The notes beneath the pieces are model-generated. The model did not search any database and was not told the DNA's origin. It was given only the letters and a program-made list of their open reading frames with translations. 64,000 nucleotides of DNA. It comes from Streptomyces thinghirensis (GTDB lineage Bacteria; Actinomycetota; Actinomycetia; Streptomycetales; Streptomycetaceae). The stretch covers positions 1 to 64,000 of the forward strand of contig JAKFGP010000044.1 in NCBI GenBank assembly GCA_021502835.1. The letters are read 5' to 3'. How positions within the stretch are numbered: position 1 is the first letter of the stretch; each line of letters starts with the position of its first letter. The translations under genes were made by a program, and so were the position numbers. Positions 16,581 through 31,893 of this stretch are shown piece after piece.

Positions 16581-17777
16581 ATGCAGGTGATCCAGTCGAC
16601 CAAGCTCGCCAACGTCTGTTACGAGATCCGGGGCCCGGTGCTCGAGGAGGCGATGCGGCTGGAATCGGCCGGGCACCGCATCCTGAAGCTGAACACCGGC
16701 AACCCGGCCGCCTTCGGTTTCGAGTGCCCGCCGGAGATCCTGGAGGACATCCTCCGCAACGTCTCGACGGCCCACGGCTACGGCGACGCCAAGGGACTGC
16801 TGGCCGCGCGCCGGGCGGTCGTCATGCACAACCAGACCCTCGGCATCGAGACGGACGTCGAGCACGTCTTCATCGGCAACGGCGTCTCCGAGCTGATCGT
16901 GATGGCGATGCAGGGACTGCTGGACGACGGCGACGAGGTCCTCGTCCCGGCGCCGGACTACCCTGTGGACGGCCGCCGTCTCGCTCTCCGGCGGTACGGC
17001 GGTGCACCACCGGTGCGACGAGCAGTCCGACTGGATGCCGGACCTCGCGGACGTCGAACGGAAGATCACCGACCGCACCAAGGCGCTGGTCATCATCAAC
17101 CCGAACAATCCGACGGGCGCGGTGTACGACGAGGCGACGCTGCGCGGGCTGACCGGACATCGCGCGCCGGCACAACCTGCTGGTCTGCTCCGACGAGATC
17201 TACGACAAGATCCTGTACGACGAGGTCACGCACACCCCGACCGCCGCGATCGCCCCGGACCTGCTCACCCTCACCTTCAACGGCATGTCGAAGGCGTACC
17301 GGGTGGCGGCTACCGGGTCGGCTGGATGTCGATCTCCGGCCCGCGCGCGCACGCCGAGTCCTCACATCGAGGGTCTGACGGTCCTGGCGAACATGCGGCT
17401 GTGCGCCAACATGCCGGGCCAGCACGGTGTGGTCGCGGCGCTCAGCGGGCGGCAGACCATCAACGAGCTGGTGCTGCCGGGCGGGCGGCTGCGGGAGCAG
17501 CGGGACGCCGCGCACGAGGCGCTGACCAGCATTCCGGGCGTGACCTGCGTGAAGCCGAAGGGGTGTGCTGTACTCTTCCCGCGGCTCTACCCCAAAGTCT
17601 TCAGATCAAGGACGACCGGCGGATGGTCCTGGACCTGCTGCGCCAGGAGAAGATCACCGAGTCGTCCAGGGCACCGGCTTCAACTGGCCCCAGCTCGCCA
17701 CTTCGGTGGTGACCCCTGCCGACGGCGAGCGACTTCACGCGATCCGCGGTGGGGGCGGATCGGCACCTCTCCATTGA
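16581..17777 (+). CDS. PLP-dependent aminotransferase, alanine aminotransferase (AlaA)-like
   Basis: Fold-I class I/II aminotransferase of about 400 residues. MQVIQSTKLANVCYEIRGPVLEEA and ILKLNTGNPAAFGF are typical of the AlaA/AspC-like group. It also shows GNGVSELIVMAMQGLLDDGDEVLVPAPDYP, VIINPNNPTGAVYDE, SDEIYDKILYD and the PLP lysine in FNGMSKAYRVAGYRVGW. Likely interconverts pyruvate/glutamate and alanine/2-oxoglutarate. Start ATG 16581 preferred over in-frame ATG 16530 because relatives start MQVIQ. Frame changes near 16965, 17150, 17315, 17360 and 17570-17680. Confidence 0.8.
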
Positions 17778-18468
17778 CGGCGTAGGCCAGCCCTGGCCAA
17801 TCGCGGATCACTATCCAACTTTTGAATTGAATCCAATGTAGGGATGGTTTCCTCAAGGCACCTCAGGAGGTCATCCCACGAACAAACTGATCCAGCTTTT
17901 AAGTCCTGGTCCACAGCACGATGGACGGCAGCACCTCGGACTTCCCCCACCAGTTCATGAGGAAGAGCTGGACAGTCCAGCTCGCGGGTCACCTATTCTC
18001 CCTACTCCTGCTGCACGACAGCGTGCAATGGCCCCATGACTGGTCTGGATACCGTTGCTGTATCGGCTCGCTGAGCAGGTGGCCCGCCTGCGGGAGGGCA
18101 GACCCCGGGTCCGCTGCCGGTGGCCGCCTGCCTGCCCCCTAGCCGCACCTGGCGGCCCTGCACCGGCGGGCGCACACCTCGTGGGCCCGCGCCCTGGTGG
18201 TGGCGGCCTCCCGTGCCGACACGGCGGTCGCGATCCTGACCGCCGAGTGCATGGACTGCGCACGCAGCGGCCCTCGAATCTGCGCGAGTTCGCGTCCCAC
18301 TGAGCCCCTCCGGGCCCCCGACGGCCTTGGCCTGCGCGCGCACCCGCAGTGACGTGCGGGCCGGGTGCCATTCACTGCGCGGGCTGGAGCGGCGGTTTGC
18401 ACACGCGCCGTGGGGCTGGCTGCCGGTTGGCGGCTTTCCGTCGTCGAGGGCTGGCCGCGCAGTTCCCC
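17778..18468. other. Non-coding or decayed region after the aminotransferase
   Basis: About 690 bp without a convincing gene. The first 200 bp (17800-18010) are clearly less GC-rich than the surroundings. On the minus strand they can be read as part of an 85-codon ORF (17735-17992, with SVCSWDDLLRCLEETIPTLDSIQKL), which I cannot assign. The remainder has short ORFs on both strands with no recognisable domain. It could be a remnant of a transferred or deleted gene; no inverted-repeat ends or transposase motif were seen. Confidence 0.4.
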
Positions 18469-18485
18469 GCGCCCCTTTGGGGCGC
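18469..18485. repeat. Hairpin element of a kind common in Streptomyces intergenic DNA
   Basis: GCGCCCC-TTT-GGGGCGC is a perfect 7-bp stem with a TTT loop, preceded by CGCGCAGTTCCCC. I recall this GCAGTTCCCCGCGCCCCTTT-type element as recurrent in Streptomyces spacers. Role unknown; it may act as a weak terminator. Confidence 0.55.
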
Positions 18486-18511
18486 GTCACTCGCCCGCGT
18501 GCAATGGTGAA

Positions 18512-18552
18512 GGGCCGGGTCCTCCGCACGCCGTTGTGCGGGGACCCGGCCC
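18512..18552 (-). terminator. Terminator downstream of pck
   Basis: Inverted repeat: GGGCCGGGTCC-T-CCGCAC pairs with GTGCGG-GGACCCGGCCC, a 17-bp stem with a one-base bulge and 6-nt loop. It lies about 100 bp past the pck stop on the minus strand. Confidence 0.75.
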
Positions 18553-18648
18553 GGTTGGGACCTCCCCGTGCTCCGGGGTACTGCTGAGCTACTGGAGCGC
18601 GGGAGACCCCTCGCGGCCGGCCTTCGTGATGACTTCCGCGGGTCAGGG

Positions 18649-20521
18649 CTAGTCGGACCGGACGGCGCGGAGCTGGTGGGGACGGTCGGCCCAGGCGCTG
18701 CACCAGGTTGCGGTACTGGTCCCACAGCTCGGTGGGCGTGTGGTCGCCGAAGGTGTTGAGGTGCTCGGGGACGAGCGCCGCCTTCCTCGCGCCACACCTC
18801 CTTGTCGACGCTGAGCAGGAACTCCAGGTCGGCGTCGGCGAGGTCGAGGCCGTCGGTGTCGAGGGACTCCTTGGTCGGCAGCACGCCGATCGCGGTCTCG
18901 ACGCCGTCCGCCTTGCCCTCCAGGCGCTCCACGATCCACTTCAGGACGCGGCCGTTCTCGCCGAAGCCCGGCCAGACGAACTTGCCCTCGTCGTCCTTGC
19001 GGAACCAGTTGACGTAGTAGATCTTGGGCAGCTTGGACTGGTCCTTGTCCTTGGCCACGTCGACCCAGTGACCCATGTAGTCGCCCATGTTGTAGCCGCA
19101 GAACGGCAGCATGGCGAAGGGGTCGCGGCGCAGCTCGCCGACCTTGCCCTCGGCGGCGGCGGTCTTCTCGGAGGCCACGTTGGCGCCGAGGAAGACGCCG
19201 TGGTTCCAGTCGAAGGACTCGGTGACCAGCGGTACGGCGGTGGCCCGGCGGCCACCGAAGAGGATCGCCGAGATCGGCACGCCCTGGGGTCCTCCCACCC
19301 GGCGCGATGATCGGGCACTGCGCGGCGGGGGTGGTGAAGCGGGCGTTGGGGTGTGCGGCGGGCGTGCCGGACTCCGGGGGGTCCAGTCGTTGCCCCTTCC
19401 AGTCCGTCAGGTGGGCGGGCGTCTCCTCGGTCATGCCCTCCCACCACACGTCGTTGTCGTCGGTGAGGGCGACGTTGGTGAAGACGGAGTTGCCCCACAG
19501 GGTCTTCATCGCGTTGGCGTTGGTGCGCTCACCGGTGCCGGGCGCGACGCCGAAGAAGCCGGCCTCGGGGTTGATGGCGTACAGGCGGCCGTCCTCGCCG
19601 AAGCGCATCCAGGCGATGTCGTCGCCGATGGTCTCCACGGTCCAGCCGGAGATCGTCGGCTCCAGCATGGCGAGGTTGGGCCTTGCCGCAGGCCGACGGG
19701 AAGGCGGCGGCGACGTACTTGGGCTCGCCGGTGGGCGGGGTCAGCTTCAGCACGAGCATGTGCTCGGCGAGCCAGCCCTCATCGCGGGCCATGACGGAGG
19801 CGATGCGCAGGGCGTAGCACTTCTTGCCGAGAAGGGCGTTGCCGGCCGTAGCCGGAGCCGTGGGACCAGATCTCGCGGTCCTCGGGGAAGTGCGAGATGT
19901 ACTTGGTGCTGTTGCACGGCCACGGGACGTCCTCCTGGCCCTGCCTCCAGCGGGGCGCCGAGGGTGTGCACGGCCTTGACGAAGAAGCCGTCGTCGCCCA
20001 GCTCGTCCAGGACCGGCTGTCCCATACGGGTCATGGTGCGCATGGAGACGGCGACGTACGCGGAGTCGGTGATCTCGACGCCGAGCGCGGAGAGCGGGGA
20101 GCCGAGCGGGCCCATGCAGAAGGGCACGACGTACATGGTCCGGCCGCGCATGGAGCCGCGGAACAGGCCCCCTCGCCCTTCTCACCCGTGAAGATCTCCC
20201 GCATCTCGGCGGGGTCCTTCCAGTGGTTGGTCGGGCCGGCGTCCTCCTCCTTGGCGGAGCAGATGAAGGTCCGGTCCTCGACGCGCGCGACGTCGGAGGG
20301 GTCGGAGGCCGCGTAGTACGAGTTGGGGGCGCTTGATCGGGTCGAGTTTTACGGAAGGTGCCCTTCTCGACGAGCTCCCCGCACAGGCGCTCGTACTCGG
20401 CCTCGGATCCGTCACACCAGACCACTTCGTCCGGCTGGGTCAGTTCGGCGATCTCGTTCACCCACGAGATCGGCCCCTGTTGTGGCGGTGGGGACGGGGG
20501 AGCAGCGATGTCGCGCGCCAC
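18649..20521 (-). CDS. pck: Phosphoenolpyruvate carboxykinase (GTP)
   Basis: Converts oxaloacetate + GTP to PEP + GDP + CO2, the entry to gluconeogenesis, in the cytoplasm. About 610 residues. The nucleotide P-loop FPSACGKTNLAML is near 19665-19700. It also has [72 protein letters not shown] and [10 protein letters not shown], all GTP-PEPCK signatures. GTG start at 20521 with AGGAG spaced about 6 bp. Frame changes near 20340, 20170, 19945, 19850, 19685, 19290 and 18785. The stop is taken at 18649, but the final residues are uncertain because of a last frame slip near 18690. Confidence 0.92.
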
Positions 20522-20816
20522 GATTGCTCCTAAATGAGGGGTTTTTTGTTTGGAGGCCCCGTGGGGCTGCGACCCGGATGCGTGACGTTGACCTCTTGGG
20601 CGCTCATCCGGTGTCGACCGCACTCATTTGATCATCCGACGTGAGCGCCCATCTGTCCAGAGGGCGTCACACCTGAGCGGCGTGAGGATCGCCACGTGCC
20701 CAAACCGGGGCTTTACGGGGGTGCGTCGCCGGGTACCCCATGAGACGATGACCACTCACCACCCACGACCGTCCGTACTGATGCGTAACTTACGGTCCCG
20801 TAGGTACGATGCCCCC

Positions 20817-21526
20817 ATGACTGCGTCCGCCCCCGACGCGCCCAGGGACACGCCCGCCGACGGCCGCGGTCCCGTAGCGCTCTCCCTGCCGCATCCGGTC
20901 AAGCCGAAGCTGCGCGGCTGGCTGCATCTCGGTATGTTTCCGGCCGTCCTCGTCGCGGGCCTGGTCCTCACCGCCCTCGCCGAGTCGACCGAAGCACGCA
21001 TCGCCTGCGGGATCTACGTCCTGACGGCCTGCCTGCTGTTCGGCGTCAGCGCGCTCTACCACCGGGGCGACTGGAGCCGCGCGGATGGACGGCGTACTGC
21101 GCCGTCTCGACCATGCCAACATCTTCCTGATCATCGCGGGCACCTACACCCCGCTCACGATGCTCCTGCTGCCGGAGGCTCAAGGGCCAGTGGCTGCTGT
21201 GGGGCATCTGGGCCGCCGCCCGGCGGCGGGCATCCTCTTCCGCGTCTTCTGGGTCGGCGCCCCACGCTGGCTCTACACCCCCTGCTACCTCGCCATGGGC
21301 TGGGCGGCCGTGTTCTACCTCCCCGAGTTCATGCGGGCCGGCGGCATCGCCGTCCTCGTCCCTGGTGATCACGGGCGGGCTGCTCTACAGCGCGGGCGGC
21401 GTGATCTACGGCCTCAAGCGCCCCAACCCGTCACCGCGCTGGTTCGGCTTCCACGAGGTCTTCCACTCCTTCACGCTGGCGGCCTTCATCGCGCACTACG
21501 TGGGGATCTCGCTGATCGCGTACTAG
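20817..21526 (+). CDS. Hemolysin III (TrhA) family membrane protein
   Basis: Seven-TM protein of about 235 residues in the hemolysin III / PAQR-like family. LRGWLHLGMFPAVLVAGLVL, LFGVSALYHRGDW (conserved S...H), LRRLDHANIFLIIAGTYTPL and C-terminal FHEVFHSFTLAAFIAHYVGI hold the conserved His/Asp residues thought to bind zinc. Frame changes near 21088 and 21360, with a possible compensating slip near 21180-21230. It shares the 295-bp spacer with the divergent pck gene. Physiological role unsettled; membrane lipid or stress functions have been proposed for the family. Confidence 0.85.
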
Positions 21527-22271: not shown

Positions 22272-23003
22272 GTGAACGGTCCCGAGATCCACGTCGAGTT
22301 CGCCCCCGAACTGCACCTGTTCGTGCCGCGCGCCCGCCCCACCGGCGCCGCCCGCGCGGCCACCGACGGCGTCTCCACCCTCGGCCATGTCGTCGAGTCC
22401 CTCGGCGTTCCGCTGACCGAGGTCGGCACGCTCCTCGTGGACGGCCGCGAGGTGCCGCCCGGACATGTCCCCACGGGCGGCGAGACGGTGAGCGTACGGC
22501 CCGTGGAACGTCCCCAGCGGGTCCCGGGCGCTCCCCTGCGCTTCCTGCTCGACGTGCACCTCGGCACCCTCGCCCGCCGGCTGCGGCTGCTCGGCGTGGA
22601 CACGGCGTACGAGTCGACGGACCTCGGCGACCCGGCGCTCGCGGCGCTGTCGGCGGCCGAGAAACGGGTCATGCTCAGCCGCGACCGCGGCCTGCTGCGC
22701 CGCCGCGAACTGTGGGCCGGCGCCTACGTCTACAGCACCCGACCCGACGACCAGCTCCGGGAGGTCCTGGACCGGTTCCGGCCCGAGCTGCGCCCGTGGA
22801 CCAGGTGCACCGCCTGCAACGGACTGCTGAAGGAAGCCACCAAGGACGAGGTGGCGGACCAGCTCGAGGGCGGGACCGAGCGGTCGTACGACGTGTTCGC
22901 GAAGTGCCTCGCGTGCGGGCGCGCGTACTGGAAGGGCGCGCACCACGAGCAGCTGGAGGCCATCGTGGAGCGCGCCCTCACCGAGTCGCGGCGGGAGCGT
23001 TAG
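22272..23003 (+). CDS. Mut7-C RNAse domain protein with N-terminal ubiquitin-like domain
   Basis: Intact 243-residue protein. Residues about 1-85 form a ThiS/MoaD-like beta-grasp domain (VEFAPELHLFVPRAR... LLVDGREVPPGHVPTGGETVSVRPV). Residues about 90-235 form the PIN-like Mut7-C domain: RFLLDVHLGTLARRLRLLGVDTAYES, LSRDRGLLRR, then a zinc knuckle CTACNG...CLACGRAYWKG. This fusion is a known bacterial architecture with presumed RNA-processing activity. GTG start at 22272. Its stop overlaps the convergent stop of the copper oxidase gene by 4 bp. Confidence 0.88.
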   Translation: MNGPEIHVEFAPELHLFVPRARPTGAARAATDGVSTLGHVVESLGVPLTEVGTLLVDGREVPPGHVPTGGETVSVRPVERPQRVPGAPLRFLLDVHLGTLARRLRLLGVDTAYESTDLGDPALAALSAAEKRVMLSRDRGLLRRRELWAGAYVYSTRPDDQLREVLDRFRPELRPWTRCTACNGLLKEATKDEVADQLEGGTERSYDVFAKCLACGRAYWKGAHHEQLEAIVERALTESRRER

Positions 23004-25419
23004 CGCTTCTTCCCGCGCACGTCCCCCTTCCCGCAGGCCACGCCGTCGCGGTCGCGGTCCAGCTTCAGCGGGTCGTCCTTGCCGTTGACCTTCAGGCGGC
23101 CGTAGTCGTGTTCCTCGAGCCAGGCGCAGCGGGTCGGCCGTCGTCGCCTCGACCTCTTCCGGGAAGGCGGTCGGCACGCAGACGTTGGCGGAGCCGTAGT
23201 GCCGGTCGCAGCCGGAGACGGTGGGGGCCGACCGGGTGCGACTCACGCTTCTCGCCGGGTCCCGCGACCTTGCCGGACGGGGCGTCGGCGAAGGAGTGGA
23301 CGTGCGCGGAGGCGTCCTTGGTGCTGAGCGCCTGCGGGCCGTCCAAGTGCACCCACTTCGCCACCGACGGCACGCCGTTCGCGTCGACCGCGAAGAGCAT
23401 GTACCAGCCGGGCGGCGCCAGGTTCGGGTTGCTCGTCACGTTCAGGTCGACGTTGTCGCCGTCCACCGACAGCGGCAGGTCCACGAACCGCTGGTTCGGG
23501 TCCGAGGAGTGCGTCACGGCGGCCGGGCGGATCAGCTCCGCCTTGGCGATGGGCCGGTCGACGGTGATCCGCTGGGTGTCGCCGTAGTTCCACTCGGTGT
23601 CGATGACCGAGGTGATCGCCGGACGCTCGCCCCTGAGCAGGTAGGGCGGGGTGTAGATCGACACGTCGTGGTTCCAGGAGCCGTTGCCCGGGTTGTCGCC
23701 GGTCGTCATCACGCGCCCGTCGGGCAGCAGGAACGCCGAGGAGTGGTAGCCGCGCGCCTCCGGGTCCACGGCCACCGGGTCGAAGGTCTCCGTCTCCGGG
23801 TCGAAGATCGACGTCTCGAAGACCGGGTTGGCCCGGTTGTGCAGGGCGCCGCCGGTCTCCAGCACCGTGCCGTCGGGCAGCAGGACAGCGGAGACGTACA
23901 TCTTGCCCTGGTCGCCGGCCTGCGGGACCGGGCCGTTGCCGAGGTCGACGGTGCCCTGCGGAAGCGGGGGCCCGGCCACGTACGTCGGGTTGGGCTCCTT
24001 GAGGTCGATGATGTCGGTCAGGCGGTTGGCGTCCGGGTTGGAGTCGATGTTGCCGCCGCCGATGGTCAGCACCCTCTGGTCCTGCGCCGGGGGCAGCAGC
24101 ACGCTGGCGGACTGGTCGCGTTCGTCCTTGTCCTGGAGGCCCGGCACCTGGGTGATGCTGTTGGCGTCGTAGTCGTAGATCGCCGAACCGGTGCCCGGGA
24201 TGTTGTTGCCGAAGACGTGGCTGCCCGAGTAGAAGAGCCGCCCGTCCTGCATCAGGATCATCGACGGGTACAGGCCCCAGTACGACCAGGTCTGGTTGAC
24301 CTGCCAGGTCGGCAGCCACTTCTGCTGCTCGTCCGACCACAGGTCGGCCGTCACCGACCCGGTGGAGTCCTCGCGCAGACCGCCGAAGGAGATGACGTCG
24401 CCGTTGCCGAGGATCGTCGCCGACGGGTACCAGTGGCCGTCGTTCATGTCGTTGGTTTTGACGTAGGTCTCGGTCTCCGGGTCGAAGATGTACGAGTCCT
24501 TGTAGCCCTGGTAGCCGATCGTGCCGTCCGCGGACGGATAGCCCTTGTTGCCGCTCATGACGAGGACACGGCCGTCCTTGAGCTGCACGTGCCCGGCGCA
24601 GAACATGTCCTTGGGCGTCGGGATCGTCTCGTAGTCGCCGGTCCCCGGGTCGTAGACCGCCGACGTGAAGGTGCCCGCCTCGAACATCTCCGGATCGTTG
24701 CCGGAACCCGCGATCAGCAGCACCTTGCCGTTGTGCAGGACGACCGAGTGCATGGAGCGGACCGGGTTCTGCGTGGGCAGCACGTCCCAGCGGCCGTTCG
24801 CGCACTCCTCGGCGGTGCCCGTGCACTCCGGGTCCGGGACCGGGTCGGCGACCTGCTCCATCGCGTAGTCGTCGGTGGTCGCCGAGCCGGTGCCGTAGAC
24901 GGAGACGCCCCAGCTGATGCGGTCGGTGCCGGCCGGGACCTCGGGCGTGCGGACGCTCGCCTCGGTCCAGTCGGCGGCCAGGTCCAGGGTCTTGAGATCG
25001 GTCCAGTACTGCCAGCCGGCGGTGGGGTCGTGCCGGAAGAGCGTGAGGGAGGTGTCCGGAGTCGTCGACTTGTACCAGAGGGACAGGTCGTACTGCTTGC
25101 CCTCCGTCACCACCGGCGCGCACTCGGTGGACTCGGTGATCAGGGCCTTGCGGTCGCCCTCGGCCCGGCGGGTCAGCTCGACCTTCATGGCCTTGCTGCC
25201 GGAGTGGGCGTCGGCGACCGTCTCGAAGGTGAAGTCGTTGTCGCCCCAGCCGGACTTCGACCAGCAGTACGGCATGTCACCGGTGCCTGCGGTCTCGAAG
25301 CCGGGGTTCTTGATGAGGTTGGCGGCGGATGCGGGCTGGGGCGCGGTGAGGAGGAGCCCGCCGGTGAGGGCGGACACCGCCAGGAGGGCGGAGGTTCTCC
25401 TTCGGGGTCTGGTTCTCAT
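23000..25419 (-). CDS. Secreted copper radical oxidase (galactose/glyoxal oxidase-like) with C-terminal Excalibur domain
   Basis: About 800 residues. Signal peptide at residues 1-32 (MRTRPRRRTSALLAVSALTG... ASA), then an N-terminal carbohydrate-binding-like domain (NLIKNPGFE..., about 34-190). Next is a kelch propeller and a DUF1929 Ig-like domain. Residues aligning with the galactose oxidase Cu site are present: Cys274 (DMFCAGH) and Tyr331 (HWYPSAT) for the Cys-Tyr cofactor, Tyr558-His559 (RGYHSSAFLLPDG) and His637 (VTHSSDPNQR). The C-terminus has an Excalibur motif (KLDRDRDGVACGK), reached after frame changes near 23225 and 23120. Its ATG overlaps the upstream GT2-GtrA stop. Likely oxidises a cell-surface glycan or aldehyde and makes H2O2. 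Confidence 0.85.
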
Positions 25420-26605
25420 GCCTCACTCCTTGCTGTGCGGGCCGTGCGGCGTCGGCGCGGGAGGTACACGAGCGCCTCCGTCCCGGCGAAGCGCAGGACG
25501 AAGGTGATGACGAGGGCCAGGGCGGTGGCCGGCAGCACGGTCAGCCCGAACTCACCGACGAGCAGGGCGATCAGCGGTATCCGCAGCACCAGGTCGGCGT
25601 TGGCGATCAGCCCGAACCGCAGGGTCCGGTCGGCCCAGTGCCGGTGCCGGCGCCGGTCGCGGAAGAGCAGCCGCTCCAGGAGCAGGAAGTTCCAGGCCAC
25701 GCCGAACTGGTTGGCGACGATCTCCGCGGGCAGGTAGTGCACGCCCGCCTCGGTCAGCGCCCACAGCGCGGCCAGGTTCGGCACGAAGCCGCTCAGGCCG
25801 ATCAGCCCGAAGGCGACCATGCGGGCCAGCGGCGAGGTGGTGCGCAGTCCGGCCAGGTGGTGCAGGAAACGCAGCCCCTCCTGCGCCGTGGACTTGGACT
25901 CCCCGGCGAACCGCTCTCGAAGACGAACGGCACCTCGGTGACCGCCTGGGGGCGGCTGCGGACGGCCAGTTCGAGGAGGATCTTGTAGCCGAGGGGCTTG
26001 AGGACCTCGGCGGTGACCTCGCTGCGGCGGATGGCGAAGAAGCCGCTCATCGGGTCGCTGATGCCGTGCAGCCGGCGCGGGAAGAGCGCCTTGGTCAGCC
26101 AGGTCGCCACGCGCGAGACGGCGATCCGGTAGCTGCCCGCCAGCCCGGCGCGGCTGCCGCCCTTGATGTAGCGGGACGCGACGACGAGTCCGGCGCCCGC
26201 CCGCTCGCCGGTGGCGACCAGCTCCGGCACCAGGGAGGGCGGGTGCTGGCAGTCGCCGTCCATGACGACGATCCAGTCCGACCCGGCCGACTTCATACCC
26301 TCGACGACCGCGCCGCCGAGCCCGCCGGCCGGTTCGTCCCGGTGCAGGACGATGACCGGGAAGGGGCAGTCGAGCGCCGCCTCGCGGATCACGTCCGGGG
26401 TGTCGTCGGTGGAGTCGTCCACGAAGACGACCTCGCAGGGCAGCCGGGCGGGGACGGACTCGGTGATCAGGCGCAGCAGCCGCCGTACGTTCCCCGACTC
26501 GTTGAAGGTCGGTACGACGATGGTGACGGCGCCCGGCTCGGGCACCTCCGATGCGCCTACGGCCGGACGTCCCAGCTCGTCGGGGACGGTGGACTCGTGG
26601 CTCAT
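25416..26605 (-). CDS. Fused family-2 glycosyltransferase and GtrA-like membrane domain
   Basis: About 395 residues. The N-terminal GT2 domain of polyprenyl-phosphate sugar transferase type has VTIVVPTFNESGNVRRLL, VVFVDDSTDDTPDV, WIVVMDGDCQHPPSLV (DxD) and MSGFFAIRRS. One frame change near 25915 leads to a GtrA domain with four TM helices (VAFGLIGLSGFVPNLAALWALTEAG; VANQFGVAWNFLLLERLLF). It probably makes or flips a lipid-linked sugar donor for the neighbouring membrane transferase. ATG at 26605 overlaps the upstream stop (ATGA), and its own stop overlaps the oxidase ATG. Confidence 0.85.
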
Positions 26606-28256
26606 CGGGCGGCTCCGGAGGACTGGATGCGGCGGATCTCGATGCGGTCCGCCCCGGTGCCGAAGACGGCGACCGGGGCCGAATGGTTCATGGCGGCCTT
26701 GACGTTGGGCAGGTCGACCGCGTCGCGCCGCACCGTCGGGGAGGCGACCACGTAGTCGATGTCGCGCCAGCCGCCCGGCATCGTCTTCGTCACCGCCGGG
26801 TCGAGGTCGGCCTTGTAGAACCAGATGACCCCGAGGCCGGGTTCGTATCCGGCGTGCACGAGGTCCAGCCACAGGGCGTCGTCCACGAGGACGCGGGTGT
26901 CCTCCGGGTTCGGCACCTCGGTCGCCAGCCAGTCGGCGGCGGCCTCGTAGGGGGCGTTGGCGTCGGCCGTGACCGCGGTGCGGTCGCCGTCGTACCAGCG
27001 GGGTACGACACAGGCCCCGGCGGCCAGCACCAGGACGCCGGCGAGTGCGTACCGGCCGAGGGTGAGCCCTCGTTTCTCGGCCTCGGTGCGCCATCTGCGC
27101 AGTACGGCGTGGGCGACGCTCGCCGCGCCGCCTGCCAGGACCAGGGCGAGGAAGGGCAGGGCCTGGATGACGTACATCGCGGGCAGGTAGCCGGTGGGGC
27201 GCAGGGCGAGGCCGGCGAGGATCGCGACCGTCAGGGCCGGTCCGGCGAGCGCCCGCGCGGTGACCGACCAGCGCCAGGTGGCCAGCAGGAGCAGCGCCCC
27301 GGCGAGGGCCGCCGAGCGGCAGGACGCGGTCGTAGTAGAGCCAGGACTGGAGGACGCCCCACGAGCCGGAGCCCTCGTCGAGGATGAAACCGGAGCCGGG
27401 GCGGGTCAGCTGGTACTCGATGCCCTCCCACAGGGAGACGTGCCCGCTGCCCGGCAGCAGCTCGCCCTTGAGCAGGGCGAACAGCGGATACGAGAACCCG
27501 ATGAGCGCGCAGGCCGTGACGGCGCCGGTCAGCGCGAACTTGCGGGTGTCCCGGTGGCTGTGCCGCCACATGGTGACCAGCAGGGCGGGCAGGACGACGA
27601 GCATCGTCTCCTTGGTGAGCACGGCCGTGGCGGCGGCGATGCCCGCGCCGAAGTGGTGCCACAGGTGGCGGCTCGGGGAGGCGGCCAGCGCGAAGGCCAG
27701 CAGCGTCCACATCACCGCGAGGTTGTCGAGGAAGATCTCCCGCTGGAGGACCACGGACAGCGGGGAGAGGCCGAAGAGGGCCATGGCGAGCCCGGCCGCC
27801 CAGCGGGGCAGGGGAGAGCCGGCGGGCGATGACGTAGACGAGGACGGCGGAGACGGCGCTGACGATCAGCATCACGCCGCGCATGGCGCCGACCGTCATC
27901 GACTCGGGGCTGAGCAGCGCGGGGATCCAGGTCAGCACGGCTATCTGGATCCAGCCGAGCGGCGGGTGGTCGTACCAGTAGGTGTAGTGGGCCAGGCCCT
28001 CGCCCCCTGCTGGACGGCCCAGGCCTGGGCGAGGTAGGTGCCCTCGTCGTCGCTGAGGGTCGGGTAGTCGGAGATGTTCCAGCCCTGCACGAGCATGATC
28101 GCCACGAGGAGCCCGCCGCACAGCAGCAGGTCGGGGCGCGAGGAGCGCAGGCGGCCCGGCGGCGCCTTCGGTTCGGGTGCCGGGCCGGTGTCGTGGGCAG
28201 GCCGGCGCTGCGCGGGGACCTTGGTGCCGGTCGCCAGCGGGGAGGGTGGAGGTCAC
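26602..28256 (-). CDS. GT39/ArnT-like polytopic membrane glycosyltransferase
   Basis: About 550 residues with many TM helices. The first periplasmic-loop motif YTYWYDHPPLGWIQIAVLTW carries the HPP/acidic pattern of PMT/ArnT-like GT-C enzymes. It is followed by LQREIFLDNLAVMWTLLAFALA and TKETMLVVLPALL. The C-terminal soluble part has WLATEVPNPEDTRVLVDDALWLDL. It would use a polyprenyl-phosphate sugar on the outer membrane face. GTG at 28256 overlaps the upstream GT2 stop (GTGA). Frame changes near 28180, 28010, 27815 and 27315. Confidence 0.82.
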
Positions 28257-29517
28257 GCGGGAACGTCCTCTCGTTCCACGGGCGCGAGGTGCGCGCCCAC
28301 GTGGCTGGTCAGCTCCCAGTCGTTGCGGCCGCGCTGCTCGCGCCATACGGCGCGGACGGCGGCCCCGGCGAGGAGTACCTGGTAGAAGGGGCCGCCGACG
28401 ATCAGCTTCAGGTAGTGCGTGAAGCGGACCCGCAGGCCGTACTGCTTGCCGAAGTCGTGCAGCCCGACGACCTCGAAGACGAAGGTGACCAGGGCGGTGA
28501 CGGCCGGCAGGAAGGTGACGAAGGCGATGCCGACGGGCACGTCCAGGAAGAGCGCGATGGCCGCGTTGAGCGGGGATGATGACGCCGGTGAAGGCTTGCA
28601 GGAAGGGCGTCATCAGGGTGTAGCAGGCCAGCAGCCGCTGGGTGAAGGTGGGCAGTTGCTTCCAGTCCTTCTTCCGGTACACCTGGAGGAAGCCCTGGTT
28701 CCAGCGGGTGCGCTGCTTGAGCAGGGAGACCAGCGAGCCCGGGGTCTCCTCCCGGGTCACCATGTCGGAGTCGTAGGCGACGACGACCTTCTTGCCGATG
28801 CTGGAGAGCCGGACGCCGAGGTCGCAGTCCTCGGCCAGGCAGTTCGGGTCCCAGCCGTCGGCCGCCCGGAGCACTTCGGTGCGGACGAAGACGGTGTTGC
28901 CGCCGAGCGGGATGAACCCCTTCTGCGCGTGCAGGTGCAGCCGGGAGCGGAACCAGAAGAAGTACTCCAGGCAGTTGCGCAGGCTGTACCAGCTGGAGTG
29001 GAAGTTGATCAGCTGGACCCCGCCCTGCACGACGTCGGCGCCGGTGGTGCGGGAAGGCGTGGTCGACGTGGGCGAGCAGTTCGGGATGGACCTGGTCCTC
29101 GGCGTCGAAGACCCCGACGACGTCGCCGCGGCAGTGCGGCAGCGCCGTGTTCATGGCCTTCGGCTTGTTCTTCTTCTCGTGGGTGTCGACGACGACCCGG
29201 ACGCGCGGATCGCGGTCGGCGGCCTTCTCGGCGACGGCGGTGGTCTCCGGATCGTCGTGTCCGACGATCACGATGATCTCGAAGTCGGTGTGGGACGAGG
29301 TCAGCAGCCGCTGGATGGTGTGGTCGAGCACGGCCTGCTCGTGCCGCGCGGGCAGGAGCAGCGAGAACGACACGTGCTCGTCGCCGTCGGGCCGGCTGAA
29401 CCGGGTGGAGGCGAGTACCTCCGGCGTACGCCAGGCATGCATCTGCCACCAGAGCGTGAACGCCGCCATCCAGAAAAGTGCCAGTGAAACGGCAGCGATG
29501 AAGACGGACGTAAGCAA
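28253..29517 (-). CDS. Processive family-2 glycosyltransferase (cellulose/hyaluronan synthase type)
   Basis: About 420 residues. N-terminal TM (VFIAAVSLALFWMAAFTLWW), GT-A domain with FSLLLPARHEQAVLDHTIQRLL, GVFDAEDQVHPEL (DxD-like), LAEDCDLGVRL (ED) and KQRTRWNQGFLQV (QxxRW). The last motif marks processive enzymes such as BcsA, HasA and CslA. C-terminal TM helices follow (VGIAFVTFLPAVTALVTFVFEVVGLH). Frame changes near 29048 and 28573. First gene of a four-cistron operon with 4-bp overlaps at each junction. Polymer identity cannot be read from sequence. Confidence 0.85.
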
Positions 29518-29725
29518 GAAAGATCCCCCCAGATCTTTGAACTCCCCCTGCGCGGCGGAGCAACCCGAATCGGGCGCCCGCTCCGCCGCGTCATGGTGAA
29601 GAGATTAGGGGCAACCTGTGAAACCCATAAGGTGTTTGGGTGAAGAGCGTGTTTCCTCACAATGAGGACCGGCTCTGAACAATTCGCCCGCCGGTCGCGT
29701 TCCGGATGCTTCCGTTTATGTCGTT

Positions 29726-31769
29726 TTAGCTGTTCAAGGCCCCGCGCAGCGCGGCACGCAGCCGCTCCGGGTCGGTCGTCGGCGCGTCACAGGTGAAGTT
29801 CCGGCAGACGTACGCGGCCGGTGCCCCGTCCACCAGGGGCCGGTCGGCGAGCAGGGGGAACTCGTCGCTCCCCGCGGCGCCGAAGGCGACGACCGCTCCG
29901 GGCGCCGTCCCCAGCAGCGCCGTACGGTGCAGGCCCTTCGCGGCGCTGTCGTCCAGCCTCGGCCCGACGACGGCGACTTCGCGCGGGCCGTCGAGCAGCG
30001 CCTCGGCGGCGGCCAGCCCCCAGCCGACGAAGCGCGGGACCCGCGGGCCGAGCGCCTTCACCACGCCGAGGGCATGCTCGGCGGCGGTGCGGTGCGGCTC
30101 CGAGCCGGTGTGCGCGGCGTAGGACAGCAGGGCGCCCGCGGCCGCGGTCCAACCGGACGGGGTGGCGTTGTCGGTGGGGTCCTGGGGGCGGCGGATCAGT
30201 TGCTCGGCGTCGGCCGCGGTGTCGTAGAGGGAGCCGGACTCGTCGGTGAAGCGGGTGAGGACGTGGTCGAGCAGCAGCCCGGCGAAGTCCAGCCAGACGC
30301 CCTCCCCGGTGACCGACGCGAGCGCCAGGAAGCCCTCCGCCACGTCGGCGTAGTCCTCCAGCACCCCCGCGTTGGCGCCCGCCCGCCCGTCCTTGCTGGT
30401 GCGGAAGAGCCGGGCCTGCTCGTCGAGGTGCAGCCGCACGAGCAGGTCGGCGGCGGCGACGGCGGCCTCCACCAGGTCGGGGCGCTCGGAGTAGGCGCCC
30501 GTCTCGGCGAGCGCGGCGATCGCGAGGCCGTTCCAGGCGGCGACCACCTTGTCGTCCCGGGCCGGGGCGGGACGCCCGTCCCGCGCGGCCAGCAGCCGCT
30601 CCCTGACCGAGGCGATCCGCTCGGCGTCGAACACGCCCTCCTGCTGCGGCAGTTGCAACACCGAGGACCCGTGCTCGAAGGTGCCCTCCTCGGTCACGCC
30701 GAAGTACTGCGCGGCGAGCGCGGCGTCGTCGGCGCCCAGGACCTCGGTGAGCTGCGCGGGCGTCCACACGTAGTACGCGCCCTCGACGTGCCGGCCCGTG
30801 CCGTCGTCGCTGTCCGCGTCCAGCGCGGGAGGCGAAGCCGCCCTCCGCGGTGCGCAGTTCACGCACCATGAAGTCGGCGGTCTCCAGGGCGACGCGGCGG
30901 GCCAGCTCGCTGCCCGTGGCCCGCCAGAGATGGGCGTAGACGCGGCACAGCAGGGCGTTGTCGTAGAGCATCTTCTCGAAGTGGGGCACCACCCACTCGC
31001 GGTCGACGGAGTAACGGGCGAAGCCGCCGCCCAGCTGGTCGTAGATCCTGCCGCGCGCCATCCGCTCGCAGGTGTCGCGCGCCATCTCCAGGGCGCCGTC
31101 GGCGCCGGTGCGGGCGTGGTGGCGCAGCAGGAACTCGACCACCATGGACGGCGGGAACTTCGGCGCCCCGCCGAACCCGCCGCGCTGCGGGTCGTACTCC
31201 CGGGTCAGCCCGAGCAGCGCCTGTCCGAGCTCCGTCTCCCCGGGTGGCCGCGCGTCGCCGTAGGAGATCTCCCGCCCGGCGAGGTCCCGCACGATCTTCC
31301 CCGCGACCTCGGTGACCTCGTCCCGGCGCTCGGCCCAGGCCTGCCCGACGCCCTGGAGCACCTGGCGGAAGGACGGCATGCCGTGCCGGGGCTCGGGCGG
31401 GTAGTAGGTGCCGAAGTAGAAGGGCTCGGCATCCGGGGTGAGGAACACCGTCATGGGCCAGCCGCCCTGCCCGGTCGCCGCCTGCACGGCCTCCATGTAG
31501 ACGGCGTCGACGTCGGGACGCTCCTCGCGGTCGACCTTGACGCTCACGAAGTGGGAGTTGAGGAACTCGGCCGTGGGGCCGTCCTCGAAGGACTCGTGCG
31601 CCATCACGTGGCACCAGTGGCACGCGGAGTAGCCGACGCTCAGCAGGACGGGTACGTCGCGGCGCCGGGCCTCTTCGAAGGCGGCGTCCTCCCATGGCCA
31701 CCAGTCGACCGGGTTCTCCGCGTGCTGGAGGAGGTACGGGGACGTCGCCTGCGCAAGTCGGTTCGGCAT
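29726..31769 (-). CDS. DUF255 thioredoxin-fold / YyaL (spermatogenesis-associated protein 20-like) protein
   Basis: About 680 residues. The N-terminal thioredoxin-like domain has the characteristic [24 protein letters not shown] (CHWC). It is followed by [18 protein letters not shown] and [22 protein letters not shown]. The C-terminal alpha/alpha-barrel resembles N-acylglucosamine epimerases or glycosidases ([48 protein letters not shown]). One frame change near 30830. ATG at 31769 ([23 protein letters not shown]). A widespread family whose biochemical role is unknown. Confidence 0.9.
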
Positions 31770-31893
31770 ACCTCCATCCTCGCGCACGCGCCGCCGCCCC
31801 GCCGATACGCCACGGTGACGGGACGCGCGGACGGGGCAGCCGGCACCACGAAGAGGCCCTCGCGGGAGCCGGCGGCTCAGTGGTCGTGCTTTG

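What the first reader, a model, noticed from the sequence alone, without database searches (positions are those of the whole stretch)
23000..29517. Four-cistron overlapping operon pairing glycan synthases with a secreted copper radical oxidase
Four genes each overlap the next by exactly 4 bp (GTGA or ATGA at 28256, 26605 and 25419): a processive GT2 synthase (QxxRW), a GT39-like membrane glycosyltransferase, a GT2-GtrA fusion, and a secreted oxidase. The oxidase keeps all galactose-oxidase copper and Cys-Tyr residues (Cys274, Tyr331, Tyr558, His559, His637). Such strict coupling implies a single machine. The known Streptomyces analogue is the CslA/GlxA pair, which makes and modifies a tip glycan during hyphal growth. 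This locus differs: it adds two lipid-linked sugar enzymes, and the oxidase carries an N-terminal binding domain and a C-terminal Excalibur motif. I propose a second surface-glycan synthesis and oxidation system, with the oxidase acting on the polymer or generating H2O2 at the wall.
Basis: partly seen in the sequence, partly recalled or inferred. Interest (0 to 1): 0.8.

Follow-up and report, generated by a model that had tools for sequence, protein, structure and literature searches.

The report
Second actinobacterial glycan synthase–oxidase operon
Many Streptomyces, and their distant relatives in the Frankia family, carry a four-gene set that looks built to make a cell-surface sugar polymer, add extra sugars to it and oxidise it with a copper enzyme, separate from the known tip-cellulose pair of such bacteria.

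Summary
Four minus-strand genes (29517 to 23000) overlap by 4 bp at each junction. The broken window frames are sequencing errors: the nearest held genome has all four intact, and the window's PEPCK gene shows the same kind of indels. All copper and Cys-Tyr residues are present, with a GlxA-type Trp beside the Tyr. The set is a conserved unit. Among 121 Streptomyces genomes, 46 have the oxidase and 47 the synthase; 46 are shared. In 45 of 45 usable Streptomyces loci synthase, GT-C and oxidase lie together, in 41 with the GtrA fusion. Nine of nine complete Frankiaceae loci keep all four in another order, with an SCO1 copper chaperone and a small protein between oxidase and synthase. That small protein is a stand-alone form of the four-Cys domain fused to the C terminus of the Streptomyces oxidase. 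The oxidase is related to GlxA but is not GlxA: separate clade, no GlxA barrel, NCBIfam score 413 against 800. Most likely a second surface-glycan system: a BcsA-like GT2 makes a polymer, GtrA fusion and GT-C add a lipid-carried sugar (perhaps mannose), and the oxidase makes aldehydes on it. Substrate and product are inferred. Nine literature searches found no description.

The parts
28253..29517 (-). GT2 glycan synthase (TTG start; DAE, ED and QRTRW motifs; hydrophobic N- and C-terminal segments by eye); two indels in the window
26602..28256 (-). GT-C-type glycosyltransferase (Pfam PMT / PMT_2 above cut-off); four indel events in the window
25416..26605 (-). polyprenyl-phosphate sugar synthase fused to a GtrA membrane domain (closest solved structure: P. 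furiosus dolichol-phosphate mannose synthase 5mlz); one indel in the window
23000..25419 (-). copper-radical oxidase with a signal peptide by eye (811 aa in G001); two indels near the 3' end in the window
24850..25320 (-). oxidase N-terminal all-beta domain, sub-threshold CBM_4_9 match
23347..24816 (-). oxidase kelch propeller and GO-like E-set catalytic core (Cys274, Trp330, Tyr331, Tyr558, His559, His637)
23000..23230 (-). oxidase C-terminal four-Cys domain (approximate limits; frame broken by indels in the window), homologous to a stand-alone Frankiaceae protein
29519..29538 (-). AAAGATCTGGGGGGATCTTT: small hairpin that holds the G-rich ribosome-binding site before the TTG start

Best explanation
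A dedicated second surface-glycan machine of filamentous actinobacteria. Step 1 (family inference): the BcsA-like GT2 makes a polymer from a nucleotide sugar and passes it through the membrane. Step 2 (family inference): the DPMS-like GT2-GtrA fusion loads a sugar, most likely mannose, on polyprenyl phosphate, and its GtrA part flips it or presents it outside. Step 3 (inference): the GT-C enzyme transfers this sugar to the exported chain as a side group. Step 4 (residues and fold shown, reaction inferred): the secreted copper-radical oxidase, held at the product by its N-terminal beta domain and its C-terminal four-Cys domain, oxidises primary alcohols of the glycan to aldehydes with release of H2O2, giving a reactive, cross-linkable surface layer. 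What the data show is that the four genes are one inherited unit; the chemistry is not shown.
Against: No substrate, product or phenotype is known. The GT-C acceptor could be a protein. The third overlap is missing in 10 of 36 loci. The GtrA fusion is absent from L061, L062, L072, L075 and L162, so it is not strictly required. The DxD position of the synthase reads DAE, the synthase is far below the NCBIfam CelA threshold (34 against 699 bits), and its AlphaFold model failed (pLDDT 47), so processivity and a translocation channel are not shown. Five Streptomyces loci (L172-L176) have a paralogous synthase+GT-C pair with no oxidase in reach, so such a pair does not need one. SCO1 is not special to this operon: two of four Frankiaceae cslA-glxA loci also have an SCO1 match in the fetched DNA.
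Confidence: 0.6

Rival explanations
1. The GtrA fusion and GT-C form a protein O-glycosylation module: they mannosylate the oxidase, or another secreted partner, and not the polymer.
For: The GT-C matches the PMT protein-mannosyltransferase families. In the paralogous loci the synthase+GT-C pair is followed by another apparently membrane-anchored secreted protein (seen in L172-L175; read in full in L175; by eye) in place of the oxidase.
Against: The GT-C is tied to a polymer-type synthase, 4-bp coupled in 39 of 39 tandem loci. Glycosylation sites in the oxidase were not examined.
Confidence: 0.2
2. The oxidase is mainly a structural partner of the synthase, as GlxA is for CslA, and its oxidation chemistry is secondary or absent.
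For: CslA and GlxA form a functional cellulose synthase complex that needs the anchor and the outer part of GlxA (PMC11022532: title and abstract start in the listing, passages).
Against: All copper, Cys and Trp residues are invariant in 45 of 45 and a copper chaperone gene is embedded in the Frankiaceae loci; the Streptomyces oxidase seems to have a cleavable signal peptide and no anchor (by eye only).
Confidence: 0.12
3. The oxidase is a stand-alone H2O2 generator for antagonism or peroxidase supply and is merely co-transcribed with glycan genes.
For: Copper-radical oxidases release H2O2 by their known chemistry (established knowledge). Four distant oxidases (L206, L207, L209, L210) have no partner genes in the fetched DNA.
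Against: In 121 Streptomyces genomes oxidase and synthase orthologues are found together in 46 and apart only in G074, where the contig ends; the genes stay together through three different gene orders.
Confidence: 0.05

Closest known systems
CslA-GlxA(-CslZ) tip cellulose system of Streptomyces (SCO2836-SCO2837)
   Same: A GT2 synthase coupled by a 4-bp overlap (in G001) to a copper-radical oxidase with the same active-site residues, including the Trp beside the Tyr.
   Different: Separate clade; no GlxA barrel PF21110; synthase from a distant GT2 branch; extra GtrA-type sugar module; four-Cys domain; distributed independently of GlxA: 38 of 46 genomes have both, 8 lack GlxA.
Three-component (GtrA-type) extracellular glycosylation systems of Gram-positive bacteria (described in the introduction of PMC13390465, passages read; PMC8035078 and PMC11127046, search listing only)
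   Same: GT-A lipid-sugar synthase, GtrA domain and GT-C transferase.
   Different: Synthase and GtrA are fused, and the module is linked to a second, polymer-type GT2 and a copper oxidase.
Extra cslA-glxA copies in S. griseus, S. albus and S. roseosporus (Liman et al. 2013, PMC3543389, passages and section 5 read)
   Same: A second synthase-oxidase pair in one genome.
   Different: Five second copies that I fetched from two-GlxA genomes (L083, L085, L087, L088, L090; about 55% GlxA) are CslA plus GlxA with none of the present four genes in reach. Whether the three named species also carry the present operon was not checked.
Copper-related gene order in Frankia (Petrus et al. 2016, PMC4736821, passages read)
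   Same: They report a sco homologue beside the cslA-glxA cluster in Frankia, and GlxA maturation that is perturbed in sco and dtpA mutants and rescued by copper.
   Different: Their supplementary figure could not be seen, so which Frankia locus they meant is open; no GtrA module, GT-C gene or small four-Cys protein is mentioned in the passages read.

Membership tests
Copper-radical oxidases (galactose oxidase fold, AA5-like) | Cys-Tyr cofactor pair plus Tyr, His, His copper ligands | tested here: met
   45 of 45 oxidases; window residues
Copper-radical oxidases (galactose oxidase fold, AA5-like) | kelch propeller plus GO-like E-set fold | tested here: met
Copper-radical oxidases (galactose oxidase fold, AA5-like) | copper-dependent oxidation with H2O2 formation | not testable with these tools
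   needs protein
GlxA (NCBIfam NF052501 equivalog) | score above the curated cut-off of 800 bits | tested here: not met
   413.5 bits; the CslA-linked GlxA of G001 scores 1144.6
GlxA (NCBIfam NF052501 equivalog) | GlxA beta-barrel domain PF21110 | tested here: not met
   not listed for P0002, 154 bits in GlxA P0006
GlxA (NCBIfam NF052501 equivalog) | lies inside the GlxA clade | tested here: not met
   27 operon oxidases and 13 GlxA are separate groups, each supported 100/99 (midpoint root, long-branch warning)
GlxA (NCBIfam NF052501 equivalog) | Trp directly before the cross-linked Tyr | tested here: met
   Trp in 45 of 45 oxidases and 9 of 9 GlxA
Processive GT2 / bacterial cellulose synthase (BcsA/CelA) | ED and QxxRW motifs | tested here: met
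   45 of 45
Processive GT2 / bacterial cellulose synthase (BcsA/CelA) | DxD motif (recalled) | tested here: not met
   reads DAE in 45 of 45, followed by D
Processive GT2 / bacterial cellulose synthase (BcsA/CelA) | NCBIfam CelA equivalog cut-off | tested here: not met
   34 against 699 bits; a synthase profile matches BcsA chains at E 2e-16
Processive GT2 / bacterial cellulose synthase (BcsA/CelA) | membrane channel for the polymer | tested here: inconclusive
   AlphaFold model pLDDT 47
Three-component GtrA-type glycosylation system | lipid-sugar synthase and GtrA domain | tested here: met
   PF00535 97.6 bits and PF04138 60.8 bits, both above cut-off; 5mlz E 2e-53
Three-component GtrA-type glycosylation system | GT-C transferase | tested here: met
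   PF02366 39.4 against 22.7 bits; no meaningful solved relative
Three-component GtrA-type glycosylation system | sugar transferred to a surface polymer | not testable with these tools
   needs chemistry
Excalibur domain (PF05901) | Pfam gathering score | tested here: not met
   14.8 against 22 bits; the acidic motif is absent in the Frankiaceae form
CBM_4_9 (PF02018) | Pfam gathering score | tested here: not met
   19.3 against 25.9 bits

The most novel reading that the evidence does not exclude
The operon builds an enzymatically cross-linked bacterial wall glycan: a polymer decorated from a lipid-linked sugar and then oxidised to aldehydes by a docked copper-radical oxidase. The four-Cys domain, fused to the oxidase in Streptomyces and a separate, apparently membrane-anchored protein in Frankiaceae, is a new partner module that places the oxidase at the synthase.
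Probability: 0.3. Interest if true: 0.8.

Novelty: new variant of a known kind. Interest (0 to 1): 0.6.

Why it matters
In the papers seen here, CslA/GlxA is the glycan synthase-oxidase system of Streptomyces. A second system, in 46 of 121 sampled Streptomyces and in nitrogen-fixing Frankia relatives, adds genes to consider when morphology, pellet formation, copper dependence or surface chemistry is studied, and 8 of the 121 genomes have it without GlxA. The fused-versus-separate four-Cys domain and the embedded copper chaperone give direct, testable predictions about protein partners.

Tried and rejected
Gene decay as the cause of the broken frames: rejected, because neighbouring housekeeping genes show the same kind of indels. 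Orthology with GlxA: rejected. Excalibur calcium domain as a full description of the C terminus: rejected. A known riboswitch in the leader: no Rfam family reaches its gathering score anywhere in the window. AlphaFold model of the synthase: too poor to search. Solved relatives of the GT-C: only two chlorophyll-binding chains at E 0.006 and 0.017, taken as chance, and none by profile. The Actinoplanes gsf cluster (PMC13390465, passages read) as the same system: different gene content; its imp cluster was not detailed in the passages, but the word 'oxidase' does not occur in the text. Literature: no paper describing this operon was found in searches; that library is open-access only. The N-terminal domain was not folded alone, so its fold is not settled. 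Oxidase relatives in Actinoplanes and Pseudonocardiaceae (P0199, P0209, P0215) were not followed to their gene neighbourhoods. The genome searches score a limited number of candidates per genome (8, 14, 10, 2), so second copies, above all, are lower bounds.
Full report
OBSERVATION. The window holds four minus-strand genes from 29517 to 23000 with GTGA, ATGA and ATGA overlaps at 28256, 26605 and 25419. The window frames are interrupted, but comparison with the nearest held genome G001 (94.8-97.5% identity over five aligned blocks) shows scattered small indels also in PEPCK (14 events), an aminotransferase gene (10) and HlyIII (4), against 9 in the four genes together; TetR has 1 and Mut7-C none. 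In G001 the same four genes are intact and overlap in the same way.

DISTRIBUTION. In 121 Streptomyces genomes, 46 have an oxidase match of at least 850 bits and 47 a synthase match of at least 600 bits; these are the same 46 plus G074. In G074 the contig ends 60 bases after the synthase frame and no operon gene lies on the upstream side, so it cannot be judged. One more genome, G044, counted as negative, has fragments of both genes, a decayed remnant. GlxA (E up to 1e-100) is in 97 of 121; 38 genomes have both systems, 8 only the new one, 59 only GlxA and 16 neither (counted; Fisher p 0.65), so presence of one does not predict the other.

GENE ORDER. Of 47 Streptomyces loci examined, one is cut by a contig end (L081) and one is the remnant (L082); of the other 45, 36 have synthase>GT-C>GtrA fusion>oxidase, 3 the same without the fusion (L061, L062, L072), 5 are rearranged into divergent pairs with all four (L076-L080), and 1 is divergent without the fusion (L075; a 46-residue trace remains). 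The 4-bp overlap is present at the first junction in 39 of 39, at the second in 30 of 36, at the third in 26 of 36; four of nine GT-C>oxidase junctions and four of five synthase>fusion junctions in the other arrangements have it too. In the best 80 of 295 named loci, 76 have the four-gene order, 3 are cut by contig ends and 1 (L162) lacks the fusion; the overlap counts are 75 of 77, 77 of 77 and 66 of 79. The two sets share some genomes and are not independent. All 80 are Streptomyces; the pattern used lies in the Streptomyces-type N-terminal domain.

FRANKIACEAE. In 394 genomes of the class, 59 have an oxidase match at E up to 1e-60, with only two candidates scored per genome. Family f18 is Frankiaceae by the names of the closest proteins (Frankia torreyi, Parafrankia, Protofrankia). 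Seventeen f18 genomes have a match above 500 bits; I fetched the loci of 11. Nine are complete and all 9 read GtrA fusion>oxidase>small protein>SCO1>synthase>GT-C; L193 shows five of the six and is cut by the limit of what I fetched, L200 is cut by a contig end. Some of the nine are near copies of each other. Four of four oxidases scanned with Pfam carry PA14 domains on the N-terminal side. Four f18 loci, found by weaker oxidase matches, hold a separate cslA-glxA pair (L204, L205, L208, L211), two of them with an SCO1 match further downstream. Four distant oxidases (L206, L207, L209, L210) have none of the partner genes in the fetched DNA.

THE FOUR-CYS DOMAIN. The small Frankiaceae protein has an N-terminal hydrophobic stretch (by eye, clear in L193, L194, L197, L202) and a domain that aligns to the C terminus of the Streptomyces oxidase: 13 columns share the same majority residue in at least 80% of both sets, including three of the four Cys; the fourth Cys is displaced by a few columns. 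A profile of the Streptomyces domain finds 8 of 10 Frankiaceae proteins above the inclusion threshold with the database size set to one million (E 1e-6 to 6e-3); the other two score 0.011 and 0.11. A search of seven genomes with one Streptomyces copy found it once in each of four Streptomyces (the oxidase itself), once in G138 next to its second oxidase, once weakly (E 0.0097) elsewhere in G175, and not in G158. That search missed the small proteins known in G138, G158 and G175, so it is not sensitive and does not show that the domain is absent elsewhere. The stand-alone form was found in 8 proteins of the large database (25 candidates scored); the four that bear an organism name are Frankia or Protofrankia. 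I read this as one domain that exists fused or separate, a Rosetta-stone link to the oxidase; the order of events is not known.

TREES. With 16 of the 45 Streptomyces oxidases, 11 from Frankiaceae, 13 GlxA and 4 distant ones, operon oxidases form one group (100/99) apart from GlxA of both families (100/99). Synthase and GT-C trees split likewise into Streptomyces and Frankiaceae groups, with support of 92/98 and 87/86 for the Streptomyces groups; the join of both synthase groups against the paralogues has only 86/93. The tool warns of long branches, and the roots are midpoint roots.

RELATED PAIR WITHOUT OXIDASE. Five Streptomyces genomes have a paralogous synthase (43-45% identity) plus GT-C pair with no oxidase in reach. 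In L172-L175 an apparently membrane-anchored secreted protein follows. In the one locus scanned for its neighbours (L175) GH5, GH6 and subtilase genes lie alongside. Cellulase genes beside this pair hint at a beta-glucan product, by inference only.

MECHANISM. See the best explanation. Shown: conserved unit, intact active sites, fold of the oxidase, copper chaperone gene in the Frankiaceae locus. Inferred: product, donor sugar, acceptor, oxidation site and cross-linking. The idea that mannose is the donor rests on the DPMS relationship and on a DPMS-like enzyme (30-34% identity) elsewhere in all 8 genomes tested, among them four whose operon lacks the fusion and which hold no close copy of it.

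LITERATURE. CslA and GlxA form a functional cellulose synthase complex (PMC11022532; title and abstract start in the listing, passages). GlxA maturation is perturbed in sco and dtpA mutants and rescued by copper (PMC4736821; passages). Liman et al. (PMC3543389; passages and section 5) found a single GlxA-architecture protein in 25 of 28 Streptomyces and extra cslA-glxA copies in three; their search by domain architecture may have passed over the present oxidase. No description of the four-gene operon was found in nine searches of an open-access library.

CHECK. On the second reading I corrected the motif (DAE, not DxD), the reason why L193 is incomplete, the list of extra cslA-glxA copies, the number of Frankiaceae oxidases scanned and the sensitivity.

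Noticed in passing
29519-29700 (-): The leader of the operon is conserved in the 74 Streptomyces loci aligned (of 80): TTG start in 69 of 74 and GATCTGGGGGGATC, which can fold with the ribosome-binding site in its loop, in 62 of 74; translational control is possible.
   Followed up: partly
16961-21360 and 23131-31819: Frequent one- or two-base indels against the close relative in several genes; the assembly looks uncorrected.
   Followed up: yes
L172-L176: A paralogous synthase+GT-C pair without oxidase; in L175 GH5, GH6 and subtilase genes lie alongside: possibly a third Streptomyces surface-glycan locus.
   Followed up: partly
L083, L085-L090: A GlxA lineage about 55% identical to the usual one, next to its own CslA, is common in Streptomyces; in several genomes (G025, G069, G075, G084, G096) it is the only GlxA found.
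   Followed up: partly
L193 and L202 (genomes G138, G286): Some Frankiaceae loci carry a second oxidase copy, each with a four-Cys-domain match just downstream.
   Followed up: no
L082 (genome G044): Fragments of the synthase and oxidase close together: a decayed remnant of the operon.
   Followed up: partly
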